From the NCBI GenBank assembly GCA_003117195.1, contig BDSI01000011.1, positions 410,901 to 474,900 of the forward strand: DNA of 64,000 nucleotides, read 5' to 3'. The notes beneath the pieces were generated by a model, which did not search any database, was not told the DNA's origin, and saw nothing but the letters and a program-made list of their open reading frames with translations. Source of the DNA: Eudorina sp. 2006-703-Eu-15. Its lineage: Eukaryota > Chlorophyta > Chlorophyceae > Chlamydomonadales > Volvocaceae. This document shows, in pieces, positions 22,276-54,834 of this stretch (the stretch's first letter is position 1; each line of letters begins with the position of its first letter). Both the position numbers and the translations under genes were made by a program.

Positions 22276-22289
22276 GCCAGCGTGGATGC

Positions 22290-25549: not shown

Positions 25550-25719
25550 GGGACGAGGAAGTAAGCCCGAGCGCATCGACCCCGGGACGAGGAAGTAAGC
25601 CCGAGCGCATCGACCCCGGGACGAGGAAGTAAGCCCGAGCGCATCGACCCCGGGACGAGGAAGTAAGCCCGAGCGCATCGACCCCGGGACGAGGAAGTAA
25701 GCCCGAGCGCATCGACCCC
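25550..25719 (+). repeat. 34-bp tandem repeat, five copies
   Basis: Identical 34-base units beginning GGGACGAGGAAGTAAGCCCG start at 25550, 25584, 25618, 25652 and 25686. They are contiguous, with no spacers. Confidence 0.95.
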
Positions 25720-26748: not shown

Positions 26749-26833
26749 TGTCTGATGATCTCACACCTGTCTGATGATCTCACACCTGTCTGATGATCTC
26801 GCACCTGTCTGATGATCTCACATCTGTCTGATG
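26749..26833 (-). repeat. 19-bp tandem repeat over the stop codon of dioxygenase copy A
   Basis: On the minus strand the units read ATCAGACAG then GTGTGAGATC, repeated about four to five times. The first unit contains the last codons (IRQM) and stop of the dioxygenase. Copy B has only two such units near 44540-44575. Confidence 0.85.
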
Positions 26834-29800
26834 GTGCCCAGCTCCTGCCACTTGGGCCGCCCAGTGCCCACCTCCGCCTCGTCGGGGCCCGCGAAGGCGC
26901 CGTCCCAGCTGCCGTGCAGCCCCGCGGGCAGTCGGTGCGGCAGTCGGAGGGTGGCCAGGGGGCCGGAGGACAGGTCCTGGGGGCCGGGGAGGGGAGGGCG
27001 GCGGGGCAGGTGGAGAGGGGAGGAGGGGAAGTCGGTGGGAAGCGGGCAGGAGGGGGTATAGGAAATTGGTAGACATATTTCCTATATCCATAATTACTAT
27101 GTTGGCAGGAGGGGGAGCCTACTCGTGCGACCACCCAGGAGGCCTCTTCAGTGCGGTATGGGAGGGTCATGGCGGGGTTACGGCACCACTCGCGCAGGGT
27201 ACTGCAGATCGTCGCAGTGAAGGCCCCCTACCGCCCGACCACCGAGCTACCAACCCAGCAACCTGCCGCCACCCCGCCAACCACCACCCCAACCATCTCC
27301 CAGCCGCCCTCGCCTCCCTCCCCGGCCGCACCCTGGCATCCAGAATGACCAGCTCGCCCTTCTGCGTGGCGACGTCGTGTACGGCCACCAGCAGCCAGCC
27401 GTCCCCCTCCTCGCGGGACCCGGGCCGGGGAACGAACAACGGCTCACCCGTGTAGCGCCGCTCGCCCGCGTACCTGGGCGACGGGGGGGAGGGAGGACAG
27501 GAGGGGGGACGAACGGGGGGGGGGTCGAGAGTACGGGTTGGGCTGGGGTGCGGACAAGAGCATGTGTAAGTGCACCCCTGTCTGGTGTTGCTCCAAGTGA
27601 CCCTTGGTTCCCCGCCTACCCCTGTCCCGTCGCTCCAGGGACGGACACACGAACCACACAGTACCGCATCACACCGTGCCGCGCCACACTCTTGCGGCAC
27701 GCAGGATCTGGAAAAGACCACAGCACGCCGGCCAAGCGTGCTCCGAAACCCGACATCCCCCCCCAGGAGCCCCGAGGCGCACCACAGGTCCAGCTTGACT
27801 CCGGGAGGCACACCCTCCGGGCTTCGGAGCAGCGCCGCATCGGCGGCCGCGTCGTCGCCTTCGTCAACACCGCCGCCGCCGCCGCCGCCGGGCCGAAGGT
27901 GGGGTCCGCCCGGGAGGCCGAAGGTGGGGTCCACTTGCAGCCCTACAATGGCCTGATTAGGACCCCACAGTACGGGATCGTCCAGCATGTCAGCGCCCGC
28001 CCACATGTAGCGGTACGGCCGGGCGGTGTAGCGGGTGTCCACGGCGGGGAACTCGGCGGTGCGGCGCATCAGGCGGTGCGGCTGCACCGTGCCGGCGGCG
28101 GGGTCGCAGACGAAGCGAACCAGGTGGGACCGGGATCCACCTGCGTAAGCAGGACCCAAGAGATGTAGGTTTGAAGAGGTCTTCAAAGAGGCTTTCATAA
28201 CCGCGGTTTCGTTTTTGCAGTGTGTGGTGAGGAAGCTGCGGCTGTCACCGATGACCCGCGGGCTCCGCTGCGACATCATTAATGAAAAACCCAAGGCTAT
28301 CGTCTCTGGTGAAACACCTGGTCAGTATGCTTTGGAAAGGAAAGCATGTCCAACTGACGGGCAACAACCACGTTTTTTTGTGCCCGTTTGACTTTCACGT
28401 TTTGGTTGACGCCCTGAACGATAAGGACCAGGACTTGTCACAGCGCGGCCTGATTGGTTGAAACTTTGGGAAACGGGACCGCTGCACAGTCGAAGCCGCG
28501 TCCCCGACCCGACCTCTCCCCCAACCGAACCTCATCGTACCGTTGTAGTACTCGGGTCCGTACGTGTACTGATTGACGTCGAACGCGACCTCATCCAGAG
28601 CCACAGAGTCCAGCACCACCAGCGGCTCCCCCACCGGGCCCTCGCGCTCCACCTCGAACGCGTTGACGTGGTGGAACACGAAGCAGGGCCGCGTCTCCAG
28701 CACCTTGGCGGACAGCGCTGCGGGGGAGAGCGAGCGGGCCGCCAATCGGAGCAAGGGGCTGCGAGTTAGTTGGTCGCAGCGAGGGATTGAAAAAAGAATG
28801 TTTAGTTTTTACTTGGACTTTTATTTTAGGTTTTTATTTCTTAAATTTAAGTTTGAAGAAGATACTGATCTCGAGCACCCCGGCGGGCTGGGGGACAGCA
28901 CTGCTCCGAGGCGAAGACCCTTGGGGCCCCACACGGCTCCAGACGGTTGCAGCAGGAACACACCGGGGTCCAGGCAGGAGGGCAGGCAGCGGGCCACGGA
29001 TTGGAGACCTAGACGGATGGGGCTACCGTACATAGGCCCCGGCCGAGAGGGAGAGAGAGAGGAGATCGATGGCCAACGTGGCAACGCTCACCCTTGCCGC
29101 TGGGCCTGCCCGGCCGGGGCACCAACACCACCTTGGCCGGCTTGGCCCTGTTGTACACCAGGCACTCCGCGATGGAGCAGCGGCCCAGGACGTAGCGGGT
29201 GGCGAACTTGCCCGCATCGAACTCGGCGGGGCCGAGAACGATGATGTAGTAATGCTCCGAGACCAGCATGTCGTGGATCAACGAGAACGACACGCCCTGC
29301 ACACACACACACACACATGCTCGCAGGTGGGTTGACTCCGGGATCCGGGAAGCGAACCCGTACCGGCTGGCAGTCTTAATGACATGTGCCGACCTACGCA
29401 GCTCGTCATCCTTACTAAGTATCCTTCGTGATGCTTTCTGGTTGGGGCAGGGGCGGTTTGGTGGCATGAGGGCATTTCCCCCACAGGGCTTAGCTGCGCC
29501 CCCTGCAAGTCACGCACTCCCGCCCTGCCGGCCTGAGAACATACATACATACATACATGCGGCGCACGGCGACGCGAGGCACATCCACGCCAGGGTCATT
29601 GGGTGTCGGATGCTGGACTGCTGCAGCGCCGCTGCCAGGGTTGGACAAACACAGTCCCAGCCAAACCCACATGCCGCACCCATCACCCACATGCCGCACA
29701 TAGCACACAGTTACCGCCGTTGCATATGGCTTGCGGCAGGGCACGATATGCAGTGTGCAGAGCTGCAGGCAAGGCCGTCCCAAGGCCATGCCAGTTTCTA

Positions 29801-32488
29801 TCAGGCATGATGAATCACACTGTTATATGCGACCCACGAGCCCACGCGCACATACACACTCACCTTGAGCTCGTGCTTTGTCTCATGCAGCAGGGCGCCG
29901 TTCTCCGCGAACTCGTAGAAGGTGATGGCGGTGCTGCCCCAGCCGGCCTCATTGGAGAAGCCCACCCAGCGGCGGCTGCCGTCCGGCTCCGACGTCACCC
30001 GGTAGTGGGCCCCGAAGGACGAGCTCCGTACAGCGTCGCCGAGGCGGCTCTCGCCGAGGGTGTCGAGCGTCTTCGGGTCCATGGCGTACGGCAGACCGCC
30101 CTGTCAGGGAAGTGGGTTTCGGGGCAGGACCTGGTTTGCCGTACAGTGGCCTCGGACGGACCTGGTCCTGGGAAGGTGCATCTTAGCCATCCACTTAGCA
30201 GGGCAGGAGTAGAGCCTCAAGGTCGCAGCAGGTCGCGACAGTGGCATCGAGACAAGGCACGAAGGCAAATGGATGTGGTCATGCGGACCAGCACCTACCC
30301 AGCAGCTGAATATGATTGTTCGGGGCTGCGGGGCCTGGGGCCCACTGCAGGTCTCGGGCATGGGCCCCATGGCCGCCGTGATTGTGCTCCCTCGGAACCG
30401 TGTTGAAGACTTGGGAGTGTCCCGCCCCTGGAGCGCCCCCAGCAACGCCCCAACCCCCCCCTCGGTCACCTCTACCTGCCCCTCCCCGCCTCTTGCCCCG
30501 CCTCTTGCCCCGCCCCGCCTCTTGCCCCGCCCTGCCTCTTGCCCCGCCCTGCATCTGCCCGGCGGCCGCCTCACCTCCCACAGCGCGTACAGCTTGCCCG
30601 CCCAGGCGAACACGCCGGTGTTGGCCACGTTCTTGAAGGACAGGTCAAAGGGGTTGAAGAAGGGCGAGCCGTCCGCCGAGCCCCGCGTGAACGAGTTCCG
30701 GAACAGCAGCCGCCCCGCCTCCTGCGGGCCGCCGGCGATGGGGCACGGACCGGCTGGCTGCGGGCGCTCCAACAAATGCACGGTACACATGCCGTAATGA
30801 TGCACAAAAGCATGAGGCCATTAGGTGCTCAAATCGGACCAATCCGCCCGCCTGCCGCTCTCTCTGGTACCGCGAGCCCACGCATGCGCCCGCGCACCTG
30901 CTCCTTCACGAAGCCCTCCGTGCGCACGAAGCGGTTCCGGAAGTAGGCCTTGCCGTCGCGGAACGCCAGCGACAGCACCATGCCGTCGCCGTCGAAGGTG
31001 TGCCGCCGGTAGCGGGGATTGTCAACCTGCGGCGGGGATTGTCCACGCGCCGACGAGGGATTGAGGCTGGGTAGCGGTAACCGCACCGCGCGGCCCTGGC
31101 AGCCACAGACTCGGGGTGCAGAGGAGGTGCAGTGGCTACGGCGGCTTGATCGACGGTCGGCCATGAGGGGACGTGGGACACGTCCGATGCCAGCCTGCTG
31201 CGCCCTCTTCTCTCGCCGCCGTCAGTTCGGCGTGTGTGTATTCTTGTGTTTAGCGAAGAAACCCCGCCCGACCCATTTCGTGCGCACTTGTGTGTATTTC
31301 GCATTGTGACTGACCCAACACTGTGGCCCACGGGTCGGTGAGCTCTGGAACTGGGAATTAGTGATCCAAACGATGGGTCGGAGGGTGCCGCCGCAAGAAG
31401 CCTGGCGGCCCCGCAACGCTGCCATACTACAGTTCCCAGTTCCGGCCCCCTGGTCCAATATGAGCATATGACGCACCTGCAGTCCGGGACCGTTACGATA
31501 GTACGTGCCGTACAGCTCGGGCGGAATGGTGCCCGTGACCTGAAGGGCGGGCGACGGACGCCGTGCATGGGGTGGCCAATCCCAGCCCCCAACCAGCACG
31601 TCAACAACAAGGTTCAGAGTGACAAAGGACAAAGGACAAATTGTCACGCTCATGACCATGAACACGCTCTTGTTCTTAACGCAGAGCGAAACTATGTGGC
31701 ATCACGCTGTGGCACACGCGCTCCCAGCCAGGCTCACCCAGCTCTCGTCGACCTCATAGGCGTACTCCTTCAGGAGGGAGGAGAACAGCGTGTTGAAATC
31801 GCGAATGTCCTCAGCTGCGGGTGCCAAGCAATAGCAAGATGATCCAAGAGCAGCAGCACACGGATTTGCTCATGGAGGGCACCAATGATTGCTTTGCTGT
31901 AACATTCATTTCATCTTCAGTGAGTAGCTTCGGGCGTTCGCGGTGTCAAGCAAGTGGGAGTCTGATGCGGGGGCGCTGTTATCAGGCGGGTAGGAGGTCG
32001 GCTGGGAGTCGACACCGTTGTCTTAAGTTGCGTCCGGATCAGACAGTCAGTCACACAGGTGCCGTTGGACTGGCAGAGACGATAAATTAATTAAAGGTCG
32101 TGTAAAGAGAAGCCAGGGCCTGTGATGAACGACGCTGCATAAGTTTTGGTGCCTCCCTGACACGCGTCAACCACACCTGTCGTCGGTCCGCGACGCGCCA
32201 GCCGCCCACTGCTGTCACGCACGACGGCTAGATCCTCGTTGGTGCTAACAGTCGCTCTTGCAGAGGGTGATGCCACTCGGGCTGGTAGGATGACGCAAAC
32301 AGTGGGACGCACGAAAATGTCATAGTTTTCTTATCTTTGAAACTCCATGACAAGATTGCCTCAATTATTGGCTTTATCGCCATAGATAGCCACTCACCAA
32401 TAACGCGTGAAGGCGTTTCCCGAAGGCCAAGGTTCCGAGAACGCAAGCATGTCATCGACCCCGTGGCAGCTCCCTTTCCAGCGAGCAT
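26818..32488 (-). CDS. Carotenoid cleavage dioxygenase, copy A
   Basis: Twelve exons, right to left: 32488-32398, 32281-32177, 31814-31738, 31539-31477, 31026-30898, 30721-30575, 30100-29864, 29296-29092, 28717-28541, 28140-27783, 27473-27332 and 26976-26818. All splice phases agree; 629 residues. The first 65 residues are Ser/Arg-rich, like a plastid transit peptide. Family motifs are IPPELYGTYYRNGPG, HTFDGDGMVLSLAF and AYFRNRFVRTEGF. All four iron-binding histidines are present: FGAH (His236), IHDML (His291), VFHHVN (His367/368) and LHGSW (His598). The RPE65/CCD family is a seven-bladed propeller with non-heme iron that cleaves carotenoid or apocarotenoid double bonds; the FRNRFVRT style resembles bacterial-type apocarotenoid oxygenases. 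Substrate is unknown. It is paralogous, exon for exon, to the gene at 44560-50215. Confidence 0.88.
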
Positions 32489-32983
32489 GGTGCTGACAGC
32501 AGTTTTTACAAGTTGTCAAGCCAGGTACTTCCTTCGCGTCGCTCCGGGGCGCACAGGCCTTACGTTTTGGTGTGCTGTTCTCTGACCTACCCTAAACCCT
32601 GCAAAGAATACCCATCAGAGACCCACAAATAGAAACGTTTACACAGGTAATCTACTCCAGGGCAATGTCCTTCCTGCCATATTGTCTTCCTGCTCAATCT
32701 ACAGCAACTAAAATTCAGTACAGTCAGAATCCGTACGTTTTGCGGCTTGTACCGATTTTCCTGGTGTGGACACATAGTTGCCCTGCGCTTTGAACAAATT
32801 ATCAATGCTCCTTTCAAGGCTTTCAAGCCTTGGATGCATTCGCGCCTTCCTTGAGGACCGCATTGACCACCGTGGAATCAATTTTCGGCCCAATAATTCT
32901 GTGTAAGCCAATAACGTCAGCTAAAATCTTATTGAACCTTGTCGTACGGCTCACCTGCAGACGACAGCTGGAGACCGTACCCA

Positions 32984-35900: not shown

Positions 35901-37043
35901 CCCTGGGTGCACAACTTCGGCTACTACCACAACCGCGAGCTGGGGCGCCCGCTGTTCGTCACCATGCTGCTGTACCTGAACGACGTCTGGCCCGAGGACT
36001 ACCACGGTACGGAACTGTACGACAAGGAGGGGAAGGCGGGGGCTCGCGCGTGTGCGTGTTTCAAAAGGGGGGAGGGAGAAGAGGTGTGTGAGCCCCTAGA
36101 CCCTAGACACCCTCCCCCTCGCCCGCCCGCACGTGTGCGCGCGAGTGTGTCCCACACCGTCTCAACGATGTGGCCGTGCGGTTCGACGACGTGTGTCCGT
36201 TGGCACGACGTCCCCCAGCACGGGTCCGTTCTTCGGGTTTATTTCTTTTTCTCAATTTATCCCCCAGCCCCTCGCGGACCACGCCCCTCACCCGTATCGC
36301 CTTTGGTGGTCGTTTCCCGGCTTTTTTCAATAAAGACAGCGAAATCCGTCTCGCCCCTCCCCCGCAGCTGAGACGCTGTTCCTGGACCCGGAGACGCAGC
36401 TGGGGCTGTTTGTGCGGCCGCAGCCGGGCAGGTGGGCCGCTGGCGGGGAAGAGGAAGGACGGGGCTCAAGGGCTGCTCATGCTGCACCCGGGTTGCTGTT
36501 ACCCGCCTGCCGTTGGGCCGTCGCACCAACGGTCCAACGCAACCCCCAAGAAACGCGCCGGCACATATCGATCGACACGCGCACTGCACCAGCCGTCGCA
36601 GGCTCGCGGCCCGCCCGTCTGCTCAACCGCCCGCCCGCCCGCCCGCCTGCTCCACCCGCAGAGTGGTCCTCATGGAGCAGGACCTGCCGCACCGCATCTC
36701 GGCGCCCTCCCTGGAAGCCCCCGGACCCCGGTACTCCCTGGTGTGGAAGCTGGTGCTGGTGCCCAGGCGCACGGGGCCCGCGGCCAATGACAGCGACTGT
36801 CGCCGCTATGGCGGCGACGGCAATGACGACCCGGGGCGCGAGAGCGGCAGCTCCGCTGGGCTGTCGCCCAGCCCCGCGGCCGACGGAGGTCGGGAGCGGT
36901 GGGGCGGCTGCGTGGCGCCGGGCGCGGAGTTCCAGAGCATTTGCCGGCCCGAGTGGGGCGAGCCGGTGCGGATCGGGACGGCCAACCGCCACTGCGGCGT
37001 GCCGGCGTTCCGTCGGGATCGCCAGGGGGCCCCCAGACTTTGA
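32984..37043 (+). CDS. 2-oxoglutarate/Fe(II) oxygenase with long N-terminal region
   Basis: Six exons: 32984-33807, 34307-34569, 35175-35333, 35617-36006, 36368-36431 and 36662-37043. Intron phases 2,1,1,1,2 agree; 693 residues. The start at 32984 gives MAASSCRMRPLSRV, typical of algal plastid transit peptides; the exon stays open further upstream, so the start is not certain. Residues from about 160 to 360 form an unrecognised alpha/beta-looking region (EDAVLLIGFHPEEVDIV, GRVVLLVGPVARALGAQLND) interrupted by Ala/Glu runs. The catalytic half carries the iron site W-H-S-D (His498 and Asp500), the distal histidine in DLPHRIS (His577) and the co-substrate arginine in PRYSLVWKL (Arg590). This is the double-stranded beta-helix dioxygenase fold. 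Substrate is unknown. It lies between the two genes of block A and has no counterpart in block B. Confidence 0.82.
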
Positions 37044-37137
37044 CGGGATGAAAGACAGACAGACGGACAAACAGACGACCGACGGGTGCGCCAAATGGAG
37101 CTGTGCCCCAGGTGCTGTTGGAGCCATCGTGTCGCTT

Positions 37138-37190
37138 GCCGGGGAGAGAAGCTGAGGGAAGCTGAGGGAAGCTGAGGGAAGCTGGGGGTG
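37138..37190 (+). repeat. 11-bp tandem repeat
   Basis: About four copies of AAGCTGAGGGA, downstream of the oxygenase stop codon. Confidence 0.85.
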
Positions 37191-37398
37191 CCTGGATGAC
37201 GTGGGAGGTCAGCGAGCGGCTGACGGCGCGGAGCCGACGGCGCCCTCCCGAACAACAAAGTCATTGGGAGTTGCTGGTGGCGGTGGTGACCCGCGGGTCA
37301 GCAATGGGTAGCTCGCGACCCGTCTGGCGCAGCCCGCCCCCTGATGGCGCTATGAAGGACAAAAAAAAGACTCGGCGGCGAGCGGCGCTACGGGGGTG

Positions 37399-37403
37399 TG
37401 TAA
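37399..37403 (+). terminator. Poly(A) signal TGTAA
   Basis: TGTAA 356 bases after the stop codon of the oxygenase gene, same strand. Confidence 0.45.
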
Positions 37404-39322
37404 CCCATGTCGAGCGTAGCAACGTGCGCGCCGTTGCGGCGAGGACCCGTCCCGACGAACCAACCGTGAAAGTGATGTTTAACGGACGTGCCGTCAGCAA
37501 GCGTTGCGTCGCCGACTGGTGCGCGCGGCTGCAGCTCGCGAGGGTGGTACATGTCTCCGTGTGAAAGCACATTTGCACGGAGGCACTCTCCGGGTCGCCC
37601 GAGGATCTCCGCGGGGGTCTGAGCGCTTTCCGCGGACGGGCGGGCGGGCGGGCTTGTGGGTGGGGCCGACCTGGTCTTGCCCTCGTTGCACGTTTGTTGA
37701 CCCGATCAAATGTGAAGGGCACCCGCTTGCTGCCTGCCCTGCACGTGCACATCCATCATGACAGGTCACCGAACAGGGTTGATGCGCCCGCCGCGCGTAA
37801 TTTTGCCATGGCTTTCAGGCCGGGCAGCTGCGACGCGCGAAGGCTGGCGCTGAGTCGTCACGGGGCGGCGCGCGAGGCGAAAACGCGCGTCTCAAACCCA
37901 AACCCAGCGGCCCGCACGCAGCCGCTAGCTGTTCGCCAGCTGTCCGCCGGCCTTTCTGCGGCCACCTCCATACCGTCAGCTCCGCCGCCAGCTGCACCCA
38001 AGAACCATGTGTAAATCATCCCTGGTCTTGGTCCATACCGTACATACTGAGTTACTGACCCTACAAGCTACAACCGGTCGGTCCGTGCCGCGTTCGCATG
38101 CTGGCACTCGCATGCTGGCACCGACGCAGCGTGTGCCGTCGTTTTGCAGGTCGTTGCAGGTCGTTGCAACCCGCGGCGGACCTCTGCACGTCGATGATCT
38201 TGTCACACCGCGCGCGCCGCTCCGTACATTATGTCGTGTCATGTATATACGTCGTAAAACGATCCAGCCGCGTCAACAGCAAAAGCCGCGGCAGTACGCA
38301 TGTGTGCGGGGAAACCTTGTACGGCAACCGGCACGGGTCCATAGGCATCCTGTTCCATCCAGTTCATCGTTGTCCTGCATGTATCAAACAAGTAAAAAAA
38401 ACACTGCATGGCGCAATCGCTGCGCCATTTCGGATTTGCTCCTGCGCCACATACCCCTGCTGCATGCAATGCATGTCTGCACCATGTCTGCGCGATGCGC
38501 TCGTGCGCAAACCCTGCGCCGTGCCTGCGCCATGCGCTCGTGCGCAACCCCTGCGCCGTGCCTGCGCCATGCGCTCGTGAGCAACCCCTGCGCCGAGCCT
38601 GCGCCATGCGGTCGTGAGCAACCCCTGCGCCGTTGCTGCGCCGTGCTCGCACACTCCCTGCTCATCGCCGAACCCACAAACCCTTGCTTGCCCATCTTCC
38701 ACACCTCCCACACACATACACACACACACCCCTTCACACACGTCCTAAAGAAGGATCGGAACGCAGGCCTCTGTCCTCAGAAACCCACTGCCCGCACCTC
38801 GGGTGCACGACATCCAACCGACCCTGCACCCGGGTGCAGGGTCCGCTACGCAATGCCAGTCAATGCCCGTCTTGGGCGTCACGTACAAGGCGACCTGGAT
38901 GCAGGTGTATATGTGTGAGTATGGTGATGCAAGCGGGCTCACAGTCCCTTGGAATGAAGACGCCCCAGCGCTTCACCGCCCCTGCGCGGACGATGGGCGG
39001 CTCCACGACGGCCGCATACCGGTATACCGCGGCAACGTCGCCAGTTCGCCCGGTGTGGGGTGAGTCCACATGGTGCGTCCGCTGTCTGCTGTTATTGTTA
39101 TCATTAAGGATGTCACAGCGGACCCCGTTGTTGTTGTTGTTCGGCTTCCGTGCGATCCGCACAGGTAGGTCTCAGGTAGAATACCCAAGGGGGCCACGTG
39201 CTCGTACATGTTCAAAGTGTTGGCGATGTTATTTTCCATGATCCGCGCGGCCGCCGCAGACCCCCGAGGCCCCTTCCGCCTTGCGTGCCTCTGACCGCAC
39301 CCACTGAGCGAACTGATGCTGC
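37404..39322. other. Intergenic stretch, minisatellite only
   Basis: No supported gene. The open frames over 38.0-38.9 kb arise from the 37-bp repeat. Confidence 0.4.
38491..38645 (+). repeat. 37-bp tandem repeat, about four copies
   Basis: ATGCGCTCGTGCGCAA-type units start at 38495, 38532, 38569 and 38606 (the last with GGTCGTGAG). Confidence 0.9.
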
Positions 39323-42300
39323 TCATGCCCAGTTGAAGAGGCTGTGCGGGGTGGCCACCACCATGGCTGGCTGGTCCGCGTCACGCATGTAGCTCTGGTG
39401 CACGAACTGCACGTCCACCACCTCCTCCTCCTTGGACCGGATGAAGTAGTCCGTGCACGTGGGCATCCCGCCGTAGCCGATGGTGTCAGTGGCACTGGTC
39501 CGGATCTTGGAGAAGTCCCAAACGACGGAGAACCGCCCGCAGCCCGCCACAATCCAGCGCTCCGAGTGGCCGCCCTCCGTGATCCAGGTGAACTTGCCCT
39601 TGGTGAACTTGGCACCCTGCAGGTAGGTCGGCCGTCGGCCGGCGAGCAGGTGGGCAACAAAACAGTAGGATCCTGAGGGAATGTTTCAGGGACAAGAACA
39701 GGTCATCGCTGCGGGGCACAAGCTCTTACTGATAATAATGAAGCTTATTGCTCGCTCCTGCCGTGATGCGTTACAGCAGAAGCAATCCAGGCGAGGCGAT
39801 GGCCGGCACTCCGATCCCGGCCATCCACAGCTCCAAGCCGGCACTCCGATCCCGGCGACCCCGCCAATGCTCCAAGCGATCCAGCGCCCAGCCCCCAAAG
39901 CGTAGTGGCCCCCCAACGCCAACCCGTTGTAAGTATGCACTAGTGGCCGATAGAGGTGACAGTACCCGTGTTGCACCGAAACAACCGGGGCCCCGCCCCG
40001 GTTACTCCCACCGGAAAACCCTGCACCCGGGGTGAAGAACGAAAAATCCCGGGCGCCAGGGCGCCGTATCCTCGACCGGCCCGCGCAGTGTGGGTGGGTC
40101 GGGGACTAGAGGCCACTGTCCCGGCAGAGGGACACGCCTCGTGGTAAGTCAGAATTACGGCAGTTCACAGAAAGGTGCGCATACGCGCCGCAATAGCCAG
40201 ACCTCCCGACGGTGCCGTACCCCGCCGTACACGGACGCCTCATGCGCCATGCTTCCACGCACCACGTCAGTTCGTTCGCAATAACTCTCCTATCTCTACG
40301 CTTCGCTTGAGAAGTCGAAGCTATTTAAAAACCCTCCAGCTGCCCGTGCGCAGTGCATCCCTTTTCGGGTTCCGCTGTAACGTTCATTCATTCATTCGGT
40401 GCATGTGTTGGACAATCCCACCTTCGTCTTAACCGTGTCCTCGGGCTTGAGCCGCAGAAGCCGCGGCACCGCGCCACGGCCGCCCATGCGGCTCTCGAAG
40501 CCGTTGGCGGCCTTGCCCTTATCGTCGACGTACGTGGTCTTGATCAGCATCAGGTACGCGTCAGTCGTGGCCAGCACCCATTTACCATCGTAGGTCACGT
40601 CGATGGACGTGATGGGCGCCCCAAGGCCGGGGATGGACGTCTTGGCCTGAGTGAGCACCCGACTGTTGTACAGGCGCACGCGGCCGTCCCGTGACCCGAC
40701 TGCCACGAAGCCATCGCCACTGGTGGCCATGCACGTGAAGTTGGTGCCCCGGCTGTAGTCCTTGCCAGCCACGTAGTCGAGGACGGGTGTCGACTGCTGC
40801 ACGACGCCCCGCTTATCGCGCAGGTCCCACCTGCACGCAGGGGTACGGTAGATAGTAAAGGGTTAGACAGCGGTGGAGCCACGCGCGCTGTGAGATAGCA
40901 AGGTGGCGGTATTCGCAAGCACATGTCCTCATGAATGGGGTAAAAAAGAAAGACGGCCCGGACACATCCAGCCCGGCAACAAATGGCGATTCGCCAACGG
41001 GTTGGGGGTTGGCCAGTGCGACAATCAACGGTGGGACGACGAGCTCTATCTGTGAGATAAGGTGGGGCCTTCCGCGCGCACCAGGCTTCCCGGTGGAAGA
41101 TCGACCAGGAACGGCGACGCAAGCAAGGCGGTGGAGGGAAGCGCGAGCGAGCGCGGTGTCCAGTGCCACTGGCTTCAGTTGCCACTGACGACCCACTGGG
41201 GTCCCCTGCCTACTGCCACTGACGACCCGCTGGGGTCCCCTGCCTACTGCCACCCGATCCATGTACCCACAGGTGGTTCCATGAGCATGTCTTACCGCTG
41301 CGCGTTGACACCTACGTCCGCGGATGCTTGCTTGTGAGACCCGGGTGCCTATCAGCCCTACCGGGGGGAACCTACCCGGAACCTGAACGGACCCGAACGG
41401 ACCTGAGCAGGTAGGGTACTTACCGACAGATGCGGTTCTGGTCCAGGCCCAGGAACTGCGAGTGCTCCTCCATCTGAGCCGCCTTGTAGTCAGACCTGAT
41501 GTCCATGATGGGCACGTCCACCGTGTCCTTCTGAAACGTGAACGTGCTGACGATCTTTTCGGCCCCGATGTCCGCATGGTACAGCGTGGTTGGGGTTTTG
41601 GGGGACAGGAGGTTCATGCGCCTCTCCCCCTGGGCCAGGAGCACCCGGGACGGCGTCAAGGCGGCCATGTCGGTTCCCGGCGACTGTGCGAGTGTGAAGG
41701 AGATGCCCTTGTCCTCAACTCCGCCGCCCTTGATATTGCGAAGGACATCGAACTTGCTGCCCCGCAGGAGGTAGTTGTTCTCGCCTGCACGCAGCAGGCG
41801 ATCGGGGTCGGCACCGCGATGGGTTCATCACCCATGTGCACGCGTGGCACGCGTGGTATTAACTCAGGTAACACGATTCACTCGAGGCTTTATGTGTGCA
41901 CGGGCCGGCGCACACTACCAACGCATCAAAGTCCATTGCGGAGGTCTTGAGGCAGCGGACATACCATGGCCGCATGCGCATCAGTTGTTGGATATTGAGG
42001 GGTTGGGGCGGAGGGAGCGGTTCCCGACGCGACGAGCGAGCCATGGAATGCGCGAGTATTCCCGGTCGGGTTCAACGGGGAGCAAGCCCTTATAAGCCTT
42101 GTTGGCAGCGCTGCTCGGCGCGTGCATGCGCATCGGCGCAGAAGATGGGGTCATGAAACATGCAGCGCGATGGGTTGCAGGAGAGCGCAAAGCCGTACGG
42201 TAGGCCTGGGAAGGCCTCTGGGCCCATCGCGCGGTCCCATACCTGAACCCATTACGATGGCCTTGATTGTATCTTCGTTCATGGCGGTCTTCTTCGCGTG

Positions 42301-42907
42301 CGTCTCCTCCAATGTCTCGGGGTTGTAAACCTTTTTGGCAGCTGCCGTTTCCTCCGTACAGGCATCCATTGGCTCGAACACCCGCTCCGCCCTGTCCTTA
42401 GTGAAGAGGACGCCCGCATAATCCTCCATCACCTTAGCACGGCTGGTTTCATCGTTCTCCATTCCATACTGGCTGTAGAAGACAGCGTCGTTCAGCTCAT
42501 CGACAAAAGCGCGACATTGCTCGCCGCTTGGGAATTTAAGGGCGTAGACGATATCCTTTGCGCTGAACGTTACACGGTGCTGCTTCACATCAGAGATGTA
42601 GTCCAGGTTGGCGTCTACGCGAACATCCACATCCCCCTGCCTTATCTCAAGGCAGAATTCTTTTTTCCCACGGCTGGAAGAATCTTCTTTTGCGTCGTAG
42701 AGACGAGGCTTTGCAATTGAACTGACAAGCTCCCAGGAGTCTTGCCTAGACGGGGCGTACTTGTAAAGTTTGATGCCTTCGCCGCCCTCCTGCAAAACCA
42801 TGAAAGAATTAAGTTACTTATAAAAGCTGTGCATGAGCAACCCAGGTGGCCCTGGTGCTCTGCACCACACTGCACCGAATGACACTTGCTTGTTGTGAAG
42901 TTGCCAT
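39323..42907 (-). CDS. VID27: VID27-like WD40/PH-domain protein, copy A, shortened N-terminus
   Basis: Exons right to left: 42907-42890, 42789-42243, 41784-41424, 40830-40422 and 39616-39323; 542 residues from the first in-frame ATG. Exon 1 aligns with the end of copy B exon 1 (NEMATSQQ against NEKATPQK), but the upstream part is decayed and an in-frame stop lies further 5'. The first intron begins GCAAGT, so it appears to be a GC-AG intron; the rest are GT-AG with the same phases as copy B. The N-terminal half (EGGEGIKLYKY, YDAKEDSSS, VTFSAKDIVYALKF) matches the VID27 PH-like region. The second half (ATSGDGFVAVGSRDGRVRLY, DVTYDGKWVLATT, ERWIVAGCGRFSVVWDFSKI) is the VID27 beta-propeller. Yeast VID27 is a cytoplasmic protein of poorly known function. 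Start choice is uncertain. Confidence 0.78.
39752..40352. other. Intron insertion of about 600 bp in VID27 copy A
   Basis: The last intron is 805 bases here but 197 in copy B. The flanks align (GGATCCTGAGGGAATGTTTC on the left, GTGCATGTGTT with GACAAT on the right), so the extra sequence entered copy A or was lost from B. It contains two copies of GGCACTCCGATCCCGGC and no coding sign. GAAGCT on both sides could be a target duplication. Confidence 0.4.
40359..40398 (+). mobile_element. Second short LINE-like tail insertion
   Basis: CCCTTTTCGGGTTCCGCTGT, then AACGTT and an ATTC-repeat tail, flanked by the 6-bp direct repeat GTGCAT (40353-40358 and 40399-40404). Copy B of the same intron has a single GTGCATGTG, so this is an insertion with target duplication. 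It is a near match to 1459-1506. Confidence 0.6.
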
Positions 42908-44559: not shown

Positions 44560-47500
44560 TCACACCTGTCTGATGGTGCCCAGCTCCTGCCACTTGGGCC
44601 GCCCAGTGCCCACCTCCGCCTCGTCGGGGCCCGCGAAGGCGCCGTCCCAGCTGCCGTGCAGCCCCGCGGGCAGTCGGTGCGGCAGTCGGAGGGTGGCCAG
44701 GGGCCCGGAGGACAGGTCCTGGGGGCCGGGGAGGGGAGGGCGGCGGGACAGGTGGAGAGGGGAGGAGGGGAAGTCGGTGGGAAGCGGGCAGGAGGGTGAC
44801 ATAGGAAGGGGGAGTCAGCAAAGAGTCTACCCAAGGGGGCAGCAGAGGGAGACTGCTGGTGCGACAACCAAGTACGATACTGCTGTGCCGTATGAATCTC
44901 GCAGAGTCCCGGCAGGATCACGACATACCACACCACGATATTGTACGACACCAAGGACTCGTAACATCCCACCACTCCCTCCCCGGCCGCACCCTGGCAT
45001 CCAGAATGACCAGCTCGCCCTTCTGCGTGGCGACGTCGTGTACGGCCACCAGCAGCCAGCCGTCCCCCTCCTCGCGGGACCCGGGCCGGGGAACGAACAT
45101 GGGCTCACCCGTGTAGCGCCGCTCGCCCGCGTACCTGGGCACAGGGGGTGGGGGACAGGAGGGGGGACGAACGGGGGGGAGAAGGGGAGAGTCGGTGGGG
45201 TCGAGAGCACGGGTTGGGCTGGGGTGCGGACAAGCGACCAAGCGAGAGCCCACTGGCGAGCAGGGGCGAAATCCAGGTTCGATACTTACGGCAAGCATGC
45301 GAAAATGCATCAGTGCGGCACCGGTAGGGCAAGTGAAGGCGAAGGTGTCCAGCATGTCAGCTCATGGGGGATGGGTGGGTTGGGAGTGCGTGGCCCGACC
45401 GCGCTGCGGGATGGACCGGAGCGCGCGATCCTTATATGACTAGATAACAGACTACGCGTGGGTACCTGGGTAAGCTTCATCAAGGCGTCCGCTTAGAGGG
45501 GGCTGTGAGACATAGCGTAGCGGCCATACGGGGTAAACCGCTGCCAATGAGCCGCCCCATCCCATTCATTCGTGCTCGCGCTAACACTCAACCGGACCAG
45601 AAGCTCCGAAACCCCATTTCCAACCTCACATTACCGTAAATGTAAGTGTTTGGGAGCCCTAGGGTGACCCACCACACGTCCGCCGCGACGCCCTCGGCCA
45701 CACCCTCCGGGCTTCGGAGCATCGCCTCCGTGGCCGCGTTGGCATCGCCGCCAGCTGGTGATGACGCAGCCCCCCGGCCCCCAGGGAGGAGGCCCAGTGC
45801 GGGGTCCACATCCAGTCGTACAATGGCCTGCTGGGGTCCCCACAGTACGGGATCGTCCAGCATGTCGCAGCCCACCCAGATGAACCGGTGGGGCCGCCCG
45901 ACGACCCGTGGGTCGTAGGTTGGGAACTCCGAAGTACGGCGCAGCAGGCGGTGGGCCTGTACGGCGCCGGAGGCGGGGTCACAGACCAGACGGAAGACGT
46001 GCGACCGGTAGCCACCTGTTGGGACGTGTCGGGGAAGGTAGGTGTTCATCAGGTGCTTCAGGAGGGGGGGCCGCAAATCCGGGTAGCGAGGCTGCGGGCT
46101 GCGAGGCTGGGCGCGGATAAAACAAAAGCCGGGGTAGAAAGGTCGGGGTCGGATCGTCGGAAGGCGCGCGCAGACCGCAGAGGCGTGCTGCCCGAGATAC
46201 GAGTAGGGACCCCCCATACGACTCCCTTAGACCCCCTACATCATCGTTTGAGCCCACTTCGATACTGCTCTCGGGCTGCCTCCGCCTCGCAGCGGTGTCG
46301 CACAATGGCCGAGGGCCCTTGGTGCGCGAGAGGGGCGTCCAGCGTAAAGCCGGATGCCGCGTGCCGGGTACTGTCAGGATTACGGCACCCCGGTGCTCCC
46401 TGGTAGGTAGGTTGCTTCGTGCTTCAAAGACGGGCACGAGACCGTACAAACCAGGCAACTAATCCCTTGGTGTGTCACAAGACAGGTGTTCTTGGTGTTC
46501 GTACCCTGGAAGTACTCCGGACCGTAGGTGTACTGGTTGGTGTCGAATGCGATGGAGTCGTGCAGTACGGTGTCCAGCACCACCAGCGGCTCCCCCACCG
46601 GCCCCTCGCGCTCCACCTCGAACGCGTTGACGTGGTGGAACACGAAGCAGGGCCGCGTCTCCAGCACCTTGGCGGACAGCGCTGCGGGGGAGAGCGGGGG
46701 CCACGGCAATACATCCCGGTGACAAGAGGCAGAGGAGACCATGGAGAGGGTCAGGTCGAATGATAAGGAATTCGAGGGAAGAGGTCGAGTGGTACATGAG
46801 ACGCGAGGACAGAGAAAGGAGCCCCTCCCCCTCCCCCGGGACTGGGGGAGCGTGGTGTGGCAGTGTTCAGTCAGGGGGTGGTGCCGCTCGCTGCGTAAGG
46901 GGTGCCGCCGCTCCTGACGGGGGCCCACTACCGTACCTGCCCCGCGCCCGGCCAGGCAGCAGCCTCCCGCAGCCGCCCACGTCGGCACCCGCCGGTCCTG
47001 TCTATATCACCCTCACAGCTCACGGCCCAGGTCCTCACCCCTGCCGCTGGGCCTGCCCGGCCGGGGCACCAGAATGACACGGGCGGGTTTGGATCCGTCG
47101 TACACCAGGCACTCCGCGATGGAGCAGCGGCCCAGGACGTAGCGGGTGGCGAACTTGGCCAGGTCGAAGTCCACCGTGCCCAGAACGATCACGTAGTAGT
47201 GCTCCGTAACCAGGATGTCGTGCACGAAGGCCTTGCTGTCGTTCTGTAAGGCAAATCAACCCACGGGCCCAGGAGGAGCGTGAGCATACGGAAGAGCACG
47301 CACGCCGTACATGAAATCTGGGATGGGAGGGGGCGCAGGGGTGATTCAGACATGTCGGCGCTGCTGCGACATGTCCCCCCAGAGGACCCCGACGCGGGGA
47401 CCCCACCCTCCCGTCCGCAGACGACACAACGCGAAAGCTGCCGGATCGGTAGCCCCCTGGGGCCGAGGGGGTACCGCACCCCTGGCGCTCTCCGCGGATG

Positions 47501-50215
47501 ACGCTCTGGCGCCTGGAGGCCTCATGGAGGCGTGCGCCAGGGCCAACTCAACGCGATCGGCTGCTTATAAAATAAAGCGTGAAACAGAATAACAAACAAG
47601 TTCCATTCTACTTCTAACTGAATACTTATTGCCTCCGTAAATACGAGCACGGGTCTCTTCAAACACACGCACACATTTCTAAACACACTCACCTTGAGCT
47701 CGTGCTTTGTCTCATGCAGCAGGGCGCCGTCCTCCGCGAACTCGTAGAAGGTGACGCAGCTGCCGCCGAACCCACCATCACTCGTGAAGCCCACCCAGCG
47801 GCGGCTGCCGTCCGGCTCCGACGTCACCCGGTAGTGGGCTCCGAAGGACGAGCTCCGTACAGCGTCGCCGAGGCGGCTCTCGCCGAGGGTGTCGAGCGTC
47901 TTCGGGTCCATGGCGTACGGCAGGCCGCCCTGTCAGGGAAGCGGGTTTCGGAGCAGGCGGTTATTAGTTGGTTGACGGCGCGCGGCGTAGGCAGGAAACG
48001 GCTTAGAGGCATGGGCGCCCCGAGGTAGTTCCAACTGAAACGCCCTGGCTGCCTCTGCCCGGTCACCTCCACTTGCCCCGACCCGCCTCTCTTGCCCCGC
48101 CCTGCCTGCCTCTGCCCGGCAGCAGCCTCACCTCCCACAGCGCGTACAGCTTGCCCGCCCAGGCGAACACGCCGGTGTTGGCCACGTTCTTGAGGTTGAG
48201 GTCGAAGGGGTTGAAGAAGGGCGACCCGTCTCCCGAGCCTCGCGTGAAGGCGGTGCGGAACAACGGCCGCCCCGCCTCCTGCGCGGACGCCGCGGTGGTT
48301 GAAAATCGAATATGCCAGGACCGGCCAGCAGCCGGGTGCGAGATGCCACCGCCCAAACTGGCAACACGCGCACCCAACGGACAGTGACCACATAACAGGC
48401 CACCTGGTGCCTCATGGATTCCTAATAATTATAGCGAGGGTGCGTACGGAATGCAAATGCAGTTTAACTGCAGTACAACTACTGCGTGCGGGCGTGCGCG
48501 GGGTGACAGGAAGTCGCACGAGGCCAAGAAGGACCCGGGCGCCATTCGGCACCGACCCATAACCGGACAAAACTCGATGGCAATCAGGTACCGTACGTGG
48601 CGGTCCCGCATGCCACATCCTCCGTGCAGTCGCGCGTCCCGTACCAGCCCGTTGTTGGGGCGGCAACAACGCTTCTGCGATATGCGCCCGCGCACCTGCT
48701 CCTTCACGAAGCCCTCCGTGCGCACGAAGCGGTTCCGGAAGTAGGCCTTGCCGTCGCGGAACGCCAGCGACAGCACCATGCCGTCGCCGTCGAAGGTGTG
48801 GCGCCCCGCTGCCTGGGGGAAGGTAATCGGAATGGGGGCACGCGGAAGGGATGGGCGGGCAGCGCCACCAGTGACTGACTGACGGACGGACGTGCATGAA
48901 CGCTGCCGGGCACACAAGAGGACGTCATCCTGCACGCGCCTTACATTGAGTCACAAGACGTTCGAGGCGAATGCCCATCAGGAAGACGTACTTGCAACAT
49001 GACCAGCAAGAGCATGCGGAAGCGGAAACATAAGAGGATGCCAGTGCACGGCGCCCTAGGCACCGCCGCAACCTTGTGTGGGTTTTGTGCGTTGCAGGAC
49101 TGGCACTGGCCCATGGGTCAGTGGCTCGTCGGGCCCCGGCCCCGGAGCGTCCGTTACGGCGACGCATCCGCAGTATGTGATGTATGATACCCAGGAATCG
49201 GGGCCGAGGAAACGGGCCAGCCCAGCGGGAGCGTGTCGTACCTGCAAGCCAGGCCCGTTGCGATAGTACGTGCCGTACAGCTCCGGCGGAATGGTGCCCG
49301 TGACCTTCGGGAAGTGGGTATGCAACGATAACATGGCGGGGGGAGGTGGGGTGGGCTTCACGGAGGTTGAGGGCGGGGCAAGGCTGACGTGCCCTCCCGT
49401 GCGGTGAGGCAGCCAACCAGTGGTTAGTTAGTGGCTTTGTCATATAACTAAACCTACAACCGAAAGCACTTGGGTCCACCTTGTAACGGTTGTGTAATTG
49501 CGTTTTGTCGAGTTTAGCTGGGTTCATCATGACATCATCAGGTCCTGTCGGACGGATGTCATCGGGCCGTCCTTCACCGGCTGCACCACCCCGCCGGGGG
49601 TAAAGCGCTAAGCAGGGGGCCGAGCTGACTCGTGCGTGCGTTTGGGATCCACAGGAAAGCCTAATCCTTACCCAGCTCTCGTCGACCTCATAGGCGTACT
49701 CCTTCAGAAGGGAGGAGAACAGCGTGTTGTATTCACGAATGTCCTCGGCTGCGCGTCAGGAACCACAACGGTGCCCGACACGACGGTGCACGACACGCGG
49801 GGGCGAAGCCGGGGGATGACGGGGGATGTGGGTGGCAGGCGGGGGTTGCCTTCACTGCCCCCAGAGCTCTCAGCAGACTGCGTCAGTCGCACCCACCTGT
49901 GATCTGCCCGCGTCTTTCAACCTTCCCGCTGCCACGACGTGCTGCCAGCGGCTCATCTACGAGTGTACTGGTAGTACTCGTCACCGTCGACGTAGACGGC
50001 ACGGCTGCCCGCACTGCGAACCGTACAGGTGATAGAAAGACGGAAGGGAATCGGAAATACAAGTCAGGGTCTTGTATTACATGCAGTGGGCATCGCCAAG
50101 GCTTCGAGGTGACTGTTCGCGACAACAAGTACCCACCAGACCGAGTCCCCGAGCAGCGGCGACGCGACGCAAAACCTGGCGCGTGCGTAAAGATGGTAAA
50201 ATTTTGGACAATCAT
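44560..50215 (-). CDS. Carotenoid cleavage dioxygenase, copy B
   Basis: Twelve exons, right to left: 50215-50137, 50013-49897, 49748-49672, 49304-49242, 48812-48696, 48278-48132, 47929-47693, 47243-47039, 46681-46505, 46015-45673, 45134-44993 and 44718-44560. Every intron has the position and phase of its copy A counterpart; 620 residues. The N-terminus (FASRRRCSGTRSVRAAVP) looks like a plastid transit peptide and is diverged from copy A, but both join at RRG(P/Q)(T/I)TAEDIR. Motifs and the four iron-binding histidines (FGAH, VHDIL, VFHHVN, LHGSW) are intact. Differences from A include loss of a DNPRY-like segment before HTFDGDG and a shorter loop in exon 10. Exon 11, exon 12 and part of their intron are nearly identical to copy A, while other introns are unrelated. 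Probably plastid; substrate unknown. Confidence 0.88.
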
Positions 50216-52133: not shown

Positions 52134-52138
52134 TTACA
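52134..52138 (-). terminator. Poly(A) signal of VID27 copy B
   Basis: TGTAA on the minus strand, 41 bases after the stop codon at 52179. Confidence 0.5.
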
Positions 52139-52178
52139 CAACAAGCATCCGAGACTCGACGAACGTCCTGTAACGCGC

Positions 52179-54834
52179 TCATGCCAAGTTGAAGAGGCTG
52201 TGCGGCGTGGCCACCACCATGGCTGGCTGATCATCGTCACGCATGTAGCTCTGGTGCACGAACTGCACGTCCACCACCTCCTCCTCCTTGGATCGGATGA
52301 AGTAGTCCATGCACGTGGGCAAACCGCCGTAGCCGATGGTCTCGGTGGCGCCGGTCCGGATCTTGGAGAAGTCCCAAACGACGGAGAACCGCCCGCAGCC
52401 CGCCACAATCCAGCGCTCCGAGTGGCCGCCCTCCGTGATCCAGGTGAACTTGCCCTTGGTGAACTTGGCACCCTGCAGGTCGGTCGGCCGGCGAGGAGGT
52501 GGGCAACAAAACAGTAGGATCCTGAGGGAATGTTTCAGGGACAAGAACAGGTCGACGCTGCGGGGCACTAGCTCAACAATGAAGTTGCCCGTTCACAGTG
52601 CATGTGTTAGACAATGCTAAGCTGTGAAACGCAGAACCTCAACCCCCTTCTCTTCGTCTTCCCGCCCACCTTTGTCTTAACCGTGTCCTCGGGCTTGAGC
52701 CGCAGAAGCCGCGGCACCGCGCCACGGCCGCCCATGCGGCTCTCGAAGCCGTTGGCGTCCTTGCCCTTATCGTTCACGTACGTCGTCTTGACCAGCATCA
52801 GGTAAGAGTCGGTCGTTGCCAGCACCCATTTACCATCGTAGGTCACGTCGATGGACGTGATGGGCGCCCCAAGGCCGGGGATGGACGTCTTGGCCTGAGT
52901 GAGCACCCGACTGTTGTACAGGCGCACGCGGCCGTCCCGTGACCCGACTGCCACGAAGCCATCGCCACTGGTGGCCATGCACGTGAAGTTGGTGCCCCGG
53001 CTGTAGTCCTTGCCAGCCACGTAGTCAAGGACGGGTGTCGACTGCTGCACGATGCCCCGCTTATCGCGCAGGTCCCACCTGCACACAAGGTTATTAGGCG
53101 AAGGTGAAACCATGCGCGCTGTGAGATGATAAGGTGGCGGGACTTGCAAGCACAAACCATCGTAAATGCGTTCCTATCAATGGCGTGCGTGCCTAGTTGA
53201 TAAGGATGACCCGTCTCCGAAGCCCCTGTCGACCCATGCGAAGCCCCCGTTTACCCGAGCACAAGCAATTCTGCATTTTGGGTCCGAAAACCACAACCCT
53301 ATAAGTTCGGTGTTAACGCATCCATGGCTTGCTGCCTGAGCTTACCGACAGATGCGGTTCTGATCCAGGCCCAAGAACTGCGAGTGCTCCTCCATCTGAG
53401 CCGCCTTGTAGTCATTCGTGATTTCCACAATCGGGACGTCCACCGTGTCCTTCTGAAACGTGAAAGTGCTGACAATCTTGCCGACCTCGATGTCCGCATG
53501 GTGCAGCGTGCTTGGATTCTCTGGGGTGAGGAGGTTCATGCGCCGCTCGCCGTGAGTCAGGAGCACCCTTGATGGCGTAAAGGCGGCACTTGGGGCAATC
53601 GGGGTCGCCGCCGCCGCCGCACCGCGCGTCCGCCGCGTGCTTGCGGGCGCCATGGCGCTGGGCGGCGGTGTGAGCGTGAAGGAGATGCCCTTGTCCTCAA
53701 CTCCGCCACCCTCGATATTCCGCAGAACATCGAACTTGCTGCCCCGCAGGAGGTAGTTGTTTTCGCCTGCACAGAACACACAACCGCGGCTGGCACGATG
53801 GGTCATACGTGTATGAGGTGTAACCTTGCTCAATACAGCAAACAGAGTACGGTTGGATGTACTTCAAGATAACCAATGGACTGGAAATCTTGGGAGACGA
53901 ACTACCCAGTCCCTTCTAGGAACGTCGCGGCTTTGTGTAACACTTAAATAATTGCATAGTAGACTGGCCGTAAAGCGGCTCCACCCCAATCCCACGTCTG
54001 CCTGCCTTGTGCACGGCATGCCCCTGGGGTAGTCCGCCTGCGCCTGTACGGCGATCCAGCAGAGTTTCTGCTGGCCCTCTGTGTGCAAACGCATCCTGCA
54101 TACCTGCACCCATAACAATTGCGTTAATCTCGTCCTCGTCCTTGGCAGTCTCTTTGGCCTGCTTCTCCTTCATCTTCTCGGGGGTGAAGAAGGTGTCTGA
54201 AGTTCCGTCGTCCGCGCTGGTGTCCATGGGCTCGAACAACCGCTCCGTGTTGTCCTTTGCGAAGAGCATGCCCGCATAATCTTCCATCACCTTGGCGCGA
54301 CCGTCGTCGTCGTTCTCAAGCCCATACTGGTTGTAAAATATGGCATCGTTCAACTGCTCGCCAAATGCGCGGCACTGCTCGTCGCTCTTGAACTTCAGCG
54401 CGTAGATTGTGTTGTTTGCGCTGAAAGTAACCCGGCGCTGCTTCACATCGAAAACGTAGTCCAGGCTGGCGTCAACGTGAACATCAACGTCCCCCTGCTC
54501 GATTTCAAGAAAGAAGTCTTTTTTCCCGCTGCTGGTGGAATCCTCCTTAGCATCATAGAATCGAGGATGCGGATTGGAACTGGCAAGCTCCCAATTTCCG
54601 GCACCGGTGCTCGTTGCGACGTATTTGTAAAGCTTTATACCTCCGGCACCCTCCTGCGTGGTAATGAATTGCACAGAACTTTTGCTGTTGCACATTGTGA
54701 AATAATAATGTGAAAGGCGGGCCTCTCATCGTTAACCCCAAATACAAACTTACCTTCTGCGGAGTCGCCTTTTCGTTTGTGTCCACCTGATTTACAGCAT
54801 CCAGAACTTCTTCTGCACTTTGAGCCTGTCCCAT
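52179..54834 (-). CDS. VID27: VID27-like WD40/PH-domain protein, copy B
   Basis: Exons right to left: 54834-54754, 54653-54104, 53766-53346, 53078-52670 and 52472-52179; GT-AG introns with phases 0,1,2,0 give 584 residues. It starts MGQAQSAEEVLDAV; Gly2 and Ser6 fit an N-myristoylation signal. The PH-like N-terminal half has EGAGGIKLYKY, FYDAKEDST and VTFSANNTIYALKF. A middle region follows (YLLRGSKFDVL, QMEEHSQFLGLDQNRICRW). The C-terminal propeller has GDGFVAVGSRDGRVRLYNS, TSIDVTYDGKWVLATTD, ERWIVAGCGRFSVVWDFSKI and a final MVVATPHSLF. Family identification rests on the conserved VID27 propeller order. Exon 3 carries a short Ala/Thr-rich insert absent from copy A. This copy appears complete; a role in membrane-associated traffic or turnover is only inferred. 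Confidence 0.85.

What the first reader, a model, noticed from the sequence alone, without database searches (positions are those of the whole stretch)
26818..54834. Tandem duplication of a dioxygenase-VID27 gene pair
Two blocks in the same orientation each carry a twelve-exon carotenoid cleavage dioxygenase followed by a five-exon VID27-like gene. All intron positions and phases match. Retention of two full dioxygenases with diverged transit-peptide regions suggests either new substrates or different targeting. Why a carotenoid enzyme should be duplicated together with a VID27 gene is not explained by known biology.
Basis: partly seen in the sequence, partly recalled or inferred. Interest (0 to 1): 0.75.

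Follow-up and report, generated by a model that had tools for sequence, protein, structure and literature searches.

The report
Old tandem gene-pair duplication, patchily homogenised
In a colonial green alga, two neighbouring genes (a carotenoid-cutting enzyme and a VID27-type protein) were copied together side by side; stretches of the two copies have since been overwritten by each other, while one VID27 copy has lost its start region, so this is mostly an ordinary duplication with an unusually readable history.

Summary
The two blocks are real, but all four genes lie on the minus strand, so transcription order is VID27 then dioxygenase. Both dioxygenases have 12 exons with identical phases and all four iron histidines (629 and 620 aa); the nearest solved structure is Synechocystis apocarotenoid-15,15'-oxygenase (copy A). 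VID27 B has five exons. VID27 A has exons 2-5; of exon 1 only a probable remnant was found, without the MG-start of its relatives. Ks cannot date the event: dS runs 0.02-0.71 along the dioxygenase and 0.07-1.23 along VID27 (heterogeneity P 1.5e-9 and 3e-19). Five of 15 introns keep 75-92% stretches; 10 do not exceed shuffles. Best reading: an old tandem duplication followed by gene conversion. V. carteri carries an extra, diverged VID27 on that scaffold, with no second dioxygenase of this clade among the hits listed. Function of the copies is untested.

The parts
26818..32488 (-). Dioxygenase copy A (CCD_A), 12 exons: 32488-32398, 32281-32177, 31814-31738, 31539-31477, 31026-30898, 30721-30575, 30100-29864, 29296-29092, 28717-28541, 28140-27783, 27473-27332, 26976-26818; 629 aa
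   Evidence: Splice model and phases; PF03055 1.9e-118 on exons 3-12; tblastn with Pleodorina, Gonium, V. carteri proteins
44560..50215 (-). Dioxygenase copy B (CCD_B), 12 exons: 50215-50137, 50013-49897, 49748-49672, 49304-49242, 48812-48696, 48278-48132, 47929-47693, 47243-47039, 46681-46505, 46015-45673, 45134-44993, 44718-44560; 620 aa; exon 1/start codon is the least certain part
   Evidence: PF03055 4.5e-115 on exons 3-12
39323..42789 (-). VID27 copy A, exons 2-5 (42789-42243, 41784-41424, 40830-40422, 39616-39323), open frame, 536 codons
   Evidence: PF08553 1.4e-46 and PF23581 2e-10
42890..42907 (-). Last codons (MATSQQ) of the probable exon 1 remnant of VID27 A; no MG start, GT donor now GC
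   Evidence: local alignment to B exon 1, score reached by 1 of 500 shuffles; no ATG between the preceding in-frame stop and this codon. Against: profile scan shows nothing above background, wider upstream alignment not above shuffles
52179..54834 (-). VID27 copy B, exons 1-5 (54834-54754, 54653-54104, 53766-53346, 53078-52670, 52472-52179), 584 aa
   Evidence: PF08553 1e-46; 73-81% identity to the seven best full-length volvocine hits
54754..54834 (-). VID27 B exon 1, MGQAQS... start with the form of an N-myristoylation signal
   Evidence: same MGxxxS start in 9 of the 11 relatives aligned (8 volvocines and Haematococcus); the other two are a Pleodorina fragment and V. carteri 95403; the motif rule is recalled
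26794..27064 (.). Similar stretch: exon 12, 24 bp downstream and ~88 bp of intron 11; 96% to 44536-44807. The intron part also resembles many other places in the genome
   Evidence: blastn; dS exon 12 = 0.024; caveat
27314..27558 (.). Similar stretch: exon 11 and the end of intron 10; 90% to 44975-45234
   Evidence: dS exon 11 = 0.027; no other genomic match of the intron 10 part listed
30884..31007 (.). Similar stretch: most of exon 5 and its donor; 99% to 48682-48805
29854..30128 (.). Similar stretch: first 48 codons of exon 7 (2 silent differences) and the last 28 bp of intron 6, then an abrupt change inside the exon; 93% to 47683-47957
39321..39725 (.). Similar stretch: VID27 exon 5 and part of intron 4; 94% to 52177-52574
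   Evidence: no other genomic match of the intron part listed
40417..40923 (.). Similar stretch: VID27 exon 4 and the end of intron 3; 91% to 52665-53154
   Evidence: dS exon 4 = 0.071; no other genomic match listed
39745..40322 (.). Interspersed repeat of ~578 bp inserted in intron 4 of VID27 A, absent from B
   Evidence: dozens of genomic matches, the best 90-93% over the full length; intron 805 vs 197 bp

Best explanation
In the lineage of this volvocine alga (probably Eudorina), a chromosome segment with the neighbouring VID27 gene and an apocarotenoid-oxygenase-like dioxygenase gene was duplicated head to tail. Both dioxygenases and the complete VID27 (copy B) stayed under coding constraint. 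Copy A of VID27 lost the start of exon 1 and evolves about five-fold faster in its N-terminal half. Repeated gene conversion between the copies, in pieces of about 0.1 to 0.5 kb (perhaps up to 1 kb if neighbouring pieces belong together), reset parts of both gene pairs to near identity. Exons and introns outside those pieces kept the original, old divergence. Shown here: the arrangement, intact frames, patchy silent and intronic identity, and that no MG start was found for copy A. Inferred: that conversion rather than another exchange made the patches, that one event copied both genes, and that the copies differ in targeting or substrate.
For: Gene models with conserved phases. Heterogeneous silent divergence: dioxygenase exons 3-12 0.024-0.705, VID27 exons 2-5 0.071-1.23; chi-square over those 10 and 4 exons P=1.5e-9 and 3.1e-19; clustering of silent differences (sum of squared runs) P=0.0014 for the dioxygenase and 0 of 20000 shuffles for VID27. 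Introns: 5 of 15 (dioxygenase 6, 10, 11; VID27 3, 4) score well above 60 shuffles, 75-92% identical; in intron 10 and VID27 intron 3 the similar part lies at the end next to the low-dS exon; the other 10 do not exceed shuffles. The similar parts of intron 10 and VID27 introns 3 and 4 have no other genomic match listed. Neighbourhood in relatives: GPECTOR_9g595/9g597, HYH03_015527/015530, and V. carteri 95405/82851, with equal contig lengths. VID27 A and B are sisters in the diverged exons (exons 2+3: 98/95; exon 2 alone: 93-94/91), end branch 0.45 vs 0.083. All 4 VID27 matches in the genome assembly lie in these two genes.
Against: In dioxygenase exons 8+10 the copies do not form a clade in the best tree (difference 0.54 log units, p-AU 0.45), so the dioxygenase duplication could be older than the VID27 one. 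The longest-run statistic alone gave only P=0.09 for the dioxygenase. The similar part of intron 11 next to exon 12 also matches about 40 other places in the genome at 73-97% over short stretches, so it is partly repetitive and weaker evidence. The dioxygenase 'similar' and 'diverged' partitions were drawn after seeing the identity, so that tree contrast is partly circular. The direction of conversion could not be found. No DNA of relatives or populations was available.
Confidence: 0.8

Rival explanations
1. One fairly recent duplication without conversion; diverged exons simply evolved fast under relaxed or positive selection.
For: Pairwise dN is higher in the diverged exons (0.281 in dioxygenase exon 10, 0.206 in VID27 exon 2).
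Against: Silent sites differ with the exon too (dS 0.024 vs 0.705; 0.071 vs 1.23), and 10 of 15 introns are not alignable above shuffles while five keep 75-92% stretches. Selection on the protein does not explain this.
Confidence: 0.08
2. The two genes were duplicated in separate events: an older dioxygenase duplication and a younger VID27 duplication.
For: Dioxygenase exons 8+10 do not group A with B; V. carteri has an extra VID27 without an extra dioxygenase of this clade among the listed hits.
Against: Same order and orientation in both blocks and an ancestral neighbourhood make one segment duplication simplest. A+B of the dioxygenase is not rejected (p-AU 0.45), and all columns of exons 3-12 together give 100/100, though conversion inflates that.
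Confidence: 0.2
3. Assembly artefact: two haplotypes laid end to end.
For: None found. The dioxygenase copies lie about 17.7 kb and the VID27 copies about 12 kb apart on one 1.73-Mb contig.
Against: dS up to 1.23, introns not alignable, different flanks and an insertion in one copy only are far beyond what I would expect of alleles.
Confidence: 0.02

Closest known systems
Carotenoid cleavage oxygenases, apocarotenoid-15,15'-oxygenase type (Synechocystis ACO, PDB 2biw; PF03055)
   Same: Best solved relative of copy A (E 9.9e-85, 288 bits); four iron histidines and three second-shell glutamates in both copies (their roles are recalled)
   Different: Eukaryotic, intron-rich, with N-terminal extensions; activity unknown; copy B is four residues shorter where relatives have NPRY or NPKY
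VID27 / DEM / CYPRO4 proteins (PF08553 with PF23581)
   Same: Both domains in both copies; B has an MGxxxS start. Plant DEM proteins usually have a predicted N-myristoylation site, and DEM1 binds RAN1 (PMC8158957, passages)
   Different: No MGxxxS start found for copy A, and its N-terminal half evolves fast
Tandem duplicates homogenised by gene conversion
   Same: Mosaic silent identity with edges inside exons and in introns
   Different: Nothing fundamental; here two unrelated genes in one unit are both mosaics

Membership tests
Carotenoid cleavage oxygenase (PF03055) | Whole-length family profile match | tested here: met
   1.9e-118 and 4.5e-115 over profile 4-467 of 469
Carotenoid cleavage oxygenase (PF03055) | Four iron-binding histidines and the second-shell glutamates | tested here: met
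   Conserved in CCD_A and CCD_B and in all 12 relatives aligned; which residues are ligands is recalled
Carotenoid cleavage oxygenase (PF03055) | Oxidative cleavage of a carotenoid or apocarotenoid | not testable with these tools
   Needs enzyme assay
VID27/DEM | VID27 C-terminal WD40-like domain | tested here: met
   1.4e-46 (A) and 1e-46 (B)
VID27/DEM | N-terminal myristoylation-type start in copy B (usual in plant DEM proteins, not universal) | tested here: met
   MGQAQS. That it is myristoylated was not tested
VID27/DEM | The same start in copy A | tested here: not met
   No MGxxxS exon found in 42790-44560 by profile scan; the probable remnant lacks it
Gene conversion between tandem copies | Silent divergence clustered along the gene | tested here: met
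   the longest-run statistic for the dioxygenase alone was not significant (P=0.09)
Gene conversion between tandem copies | Non-coding sequence next to the similar exons also homogenised | tested here: met
   5 of 15 introns; one of these, intron 11, is partly repetitive
Gene conversion between tandem copies | Direction and donor of each tract | not testable with these tools
   No DNA of related species held

The most novel reading that the evidence does not exclude
The VID27 gene next to this dioxygenase repeatedly gives rise, in volvocine algae, to a second VID27 without the myristoylated start: VID27 A here and VOLCADRAFT_95403 in V. carteri. Each would make a soluble or retargeted partner of the membrane-anchored protein, kept as a working gene beside a retinal-type dioxygenase.
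Probability: 0.25. Interest if true: 0.5.

Novelty: new member of a known kind. Interest (0 to 1): 0.32.

Why it matters
It shows that whole-gene Ks can mislead for tandem copies in a volvocine genome. It also offers a natural pair for asking what the N-terminal lipid anchor of VID27/DEM proteins does. The dioxygenases belong to a clade whose nearest solved relative makes retinal; a 2016 review (PMC5133782, passages) noted that ACO-like proteins were reported in the Chlamydomonas eyespot proteome but that its phylogenetic analysis of algal sequences found only CCD7 and CCD8 homologues. The algal clade here, with a Chlamydomonas reinhardtii member (P0008), is a candidate to test.

Tried and rejected
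Considered and dropped: a duplication breakpoint inside intron 1 of VID27, to explain the missing exon 1 of copy A. Dropped because a colinear probable exon 1 remnant is present; the evidence for that remnant is modest, so the breakpoint idea is not excluded.

VID27 A as orthologous to V. carteri 95403: not supported. 95403 is 48% identical to A and 52% to B in exon 3 and 24%/23% in exon 2, and has a very long branch. A search with it listed 51 proteins including itself, none an obvious ortholog. Its lacking exon 1 may be an annotation gap.

VID27 A as a pseudogene: disfavoured. Four exons are open with splice phases kept, and neutral simulation of exon 2 alone leaves no stop in a fraction 0.044, 0.003 and 0.002 of 2000 runs at 0.2, 0.4 and 0.6 substitutions per site. 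Expression is unknown.

Flanking genes: Pfam scans of 20 chosen ORFs of the many in the flanks and the gap between the genes of block A gave three weak hits, none over its cut-off. Paper searches for CCDs in Volvox/Chlamydomonas (5 listed), VID27 (3 listed), retinal synthesis (12 of 13 listed), gene conversion in volvocines (10 of 140 listed) and Eudorina genomes (7 listed) listed no paper whose title or abstract start describes this locus; only passages of four papers were seen.
Full report
What is there. The window is C11:410901-474900 of a 181.2-Mb, 3033-contig assembly. Size and contig number are close to the published Eudorina sp. female assembly (184.03 Mb, 3180 contigs; PMC6123790, passages), so the organism is probably Eudorina; this is inference. 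A self-comparison finds 16 similar pieces (15 in the same orientation) between 26.7-42.8 kb and 44.5-54.7 kb, besides the trivial overlap of the two pieces compared. Translation shows that the coding strand is minus, so each block reads VID27 then dioxygenase.

Gene models. Splicing by hand gives 12-exon dioxygenases A (32488-26818, 629 aa) and B (50215-44560, 620 aa) with identical phases. VID27 B has five exons (54834-52179) and VID27 A has exons 2-5 (42789-39323). Pfam gives RPE65/carotenoid oxygenase for both enzymes, and VID27 plus DUF7135 for both others. The nearest solved structure for A is Synechocystis apocarotenoid-15,15'-oxygenase (B was not searched). The four histidines and three glutamates are present in both copies and in all 12 relatives aligned. 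Copy B is four residues shorter at the 5' edge of exon 5, where relatives have NPRY or NPKY (the C. reinhardtii entry starts later).

Why these two genes. The search with dioxygenase A (797 proteins, best 120 listed) and with VID27 B (199 proteins, best 120 listed) returned Gonium GPECTOR_9g595 and 9g597 on contigs of equal length, Edaphochlamys HYH03_015527 and 015530 likewise, and V. carteri 95405 and 82851 likewise. Of six relatives with both genes in the lists, these three could be tested. For Pleodorina and V. africanus the hits carry different tag series and contig lengths, and for Chlamydomonas reinhardtii no contig is given for the dioxygenase. The pair is therefore probably an old neighbourhood in volvocines, and a segment duplication copies both genes.

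Age and conversion. Overall dS is 0.264 for the dioxygenases (553 aligned codons, exons 3-12) and 0.377 for VID27 exons 2-5 (535 codons), but by exon it runs 0.147, 0.477, 0.109, 0.254, 0.093, 0.358, 0.308, 0.705, 0.027, 0.024 (dioxygenase exons 3-12) and 1.230, 0.410, 0.071, 0.109 (VID27 exons 2-5). Heterogeneity is P=1.5e-9 and 3.1e-19. Sharp changes lie inside dioxygenase exons 7 and 9. For the dioxygenase the sum of squared runs of unchanged silent codons gives P=0.0014 but the longest run alone P=0.09; for VID27 neither was reached in 20000 shuffles. Introns give independent evidence: 5 of 15 have stretches well above 60 shuffles each, the other 10 do not exceed them. Against this, the similar end of intron 11 also matches about 40 other genomic places and is partly repetitive; the similar parts of intron 10 and of VID27 introns 3 and 4 have no other genomic match listed, and intron 6 was not tested that way. 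Gene conversion between the tandem copies is the simplest reading; the direction is unknown. A ~578-bp repeat with dozens of genomic matches sits in intron 4 of VID27 A only.

Trees. In the diverged exons VID27 A and B are sisters (exons 2+3: 98/95; exon 2 alone: 93-94/91, below the programme's star), A with a branch of 0.45 against 0.083, or 0.58 against 0.084 for exon 2 alone. In the diverged dioxygenase exons the two copies have similar branches (0.26 and 0.27 in exons 8+10) and their grouping is unresolved (p-AU 0.45). So a single event is likely but not proven.

VID27 A. Its exon 1 survives at most as a remnant: 6 of the last 11 residues match, the DNA alignment score was reached by 1 of 500 shuffles, but the profile scan and the wider upstream alignment were not above background. 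The MGxxxS start, present in VID27 B and in 9 of 11 relatives aligned (the others are a Pleodorina fragment and V. carteri 95403), was not found. Possible starts are MATSQQ (if a GC-AG intron is used) or MVLQ just before exon 2. Plant DEM proteins usually carry a predicted myristoylation site (PMC8158957, passages). Loss of membrane anchoring is the natural prediction, not a result. The dioxygenase N-terminus shows the opposite tendency: copy A scores higher than B against 6 of 6 relatives (Pleodorina 132 vs 68).

Other copies. The genome search finds 4 VID27 matches, all in these two genes. It finds dioxygenase-family matches on C104 and on C3, C4, C6, C26, C34 and C84. The C104 gene looks like the clade II ortholog: in 6 of 7 stretches it is nearer to the Gonium clade II protein than to the Gonium clade I protein.

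Noticed in passing
G000 C6:807169-807456 and 825309-825596 (L005, L004): Another pair of carotenoid-oxygenase-family genes about 18 kb apart on one strand, 94.6% identical over 2.2 kb, with relatives on C4 and C26.
   Followed up: partly
window 39745-40322: Interspersed repeat of ~578 bp in intron 4 of VID27 A, dozens of matches in the genome; no terminal inverted repeat longer than 7 bases found in its outer 80 bases.
   Followed up: partly
window 26979-27080: The part of intron 11 of dioxygenase A next to exon 12 resembles about 40 other places in the genome, so it is partly repetitive or low-complexity.
   Followed up: no
window 32489-39322: About 6.8 kb between the two genes of block A, with short stretches repeated elsewhere in the genome and a 37-bp tandem repeat; block B has only about 2 kb there.
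   Followed up: partly
window 13407-14474: ORF with a weak, below-cut-off match to the hAT transposase dimerisation region.
   Followed up: no
Volvox carteri VOLCADRAFT_95403 (P0211): A strongly diverged second VID27 on a contig of the same length as that of the orthologous dioxygenase, with no obvious ortholog among the 51 proteins listed.
   Followed up: partly
window 25549-25725, 22282-22679 and 10624-11114: Tandem repeats with 34-, 80- and 68/69-bp spacing.
   Followed up: no
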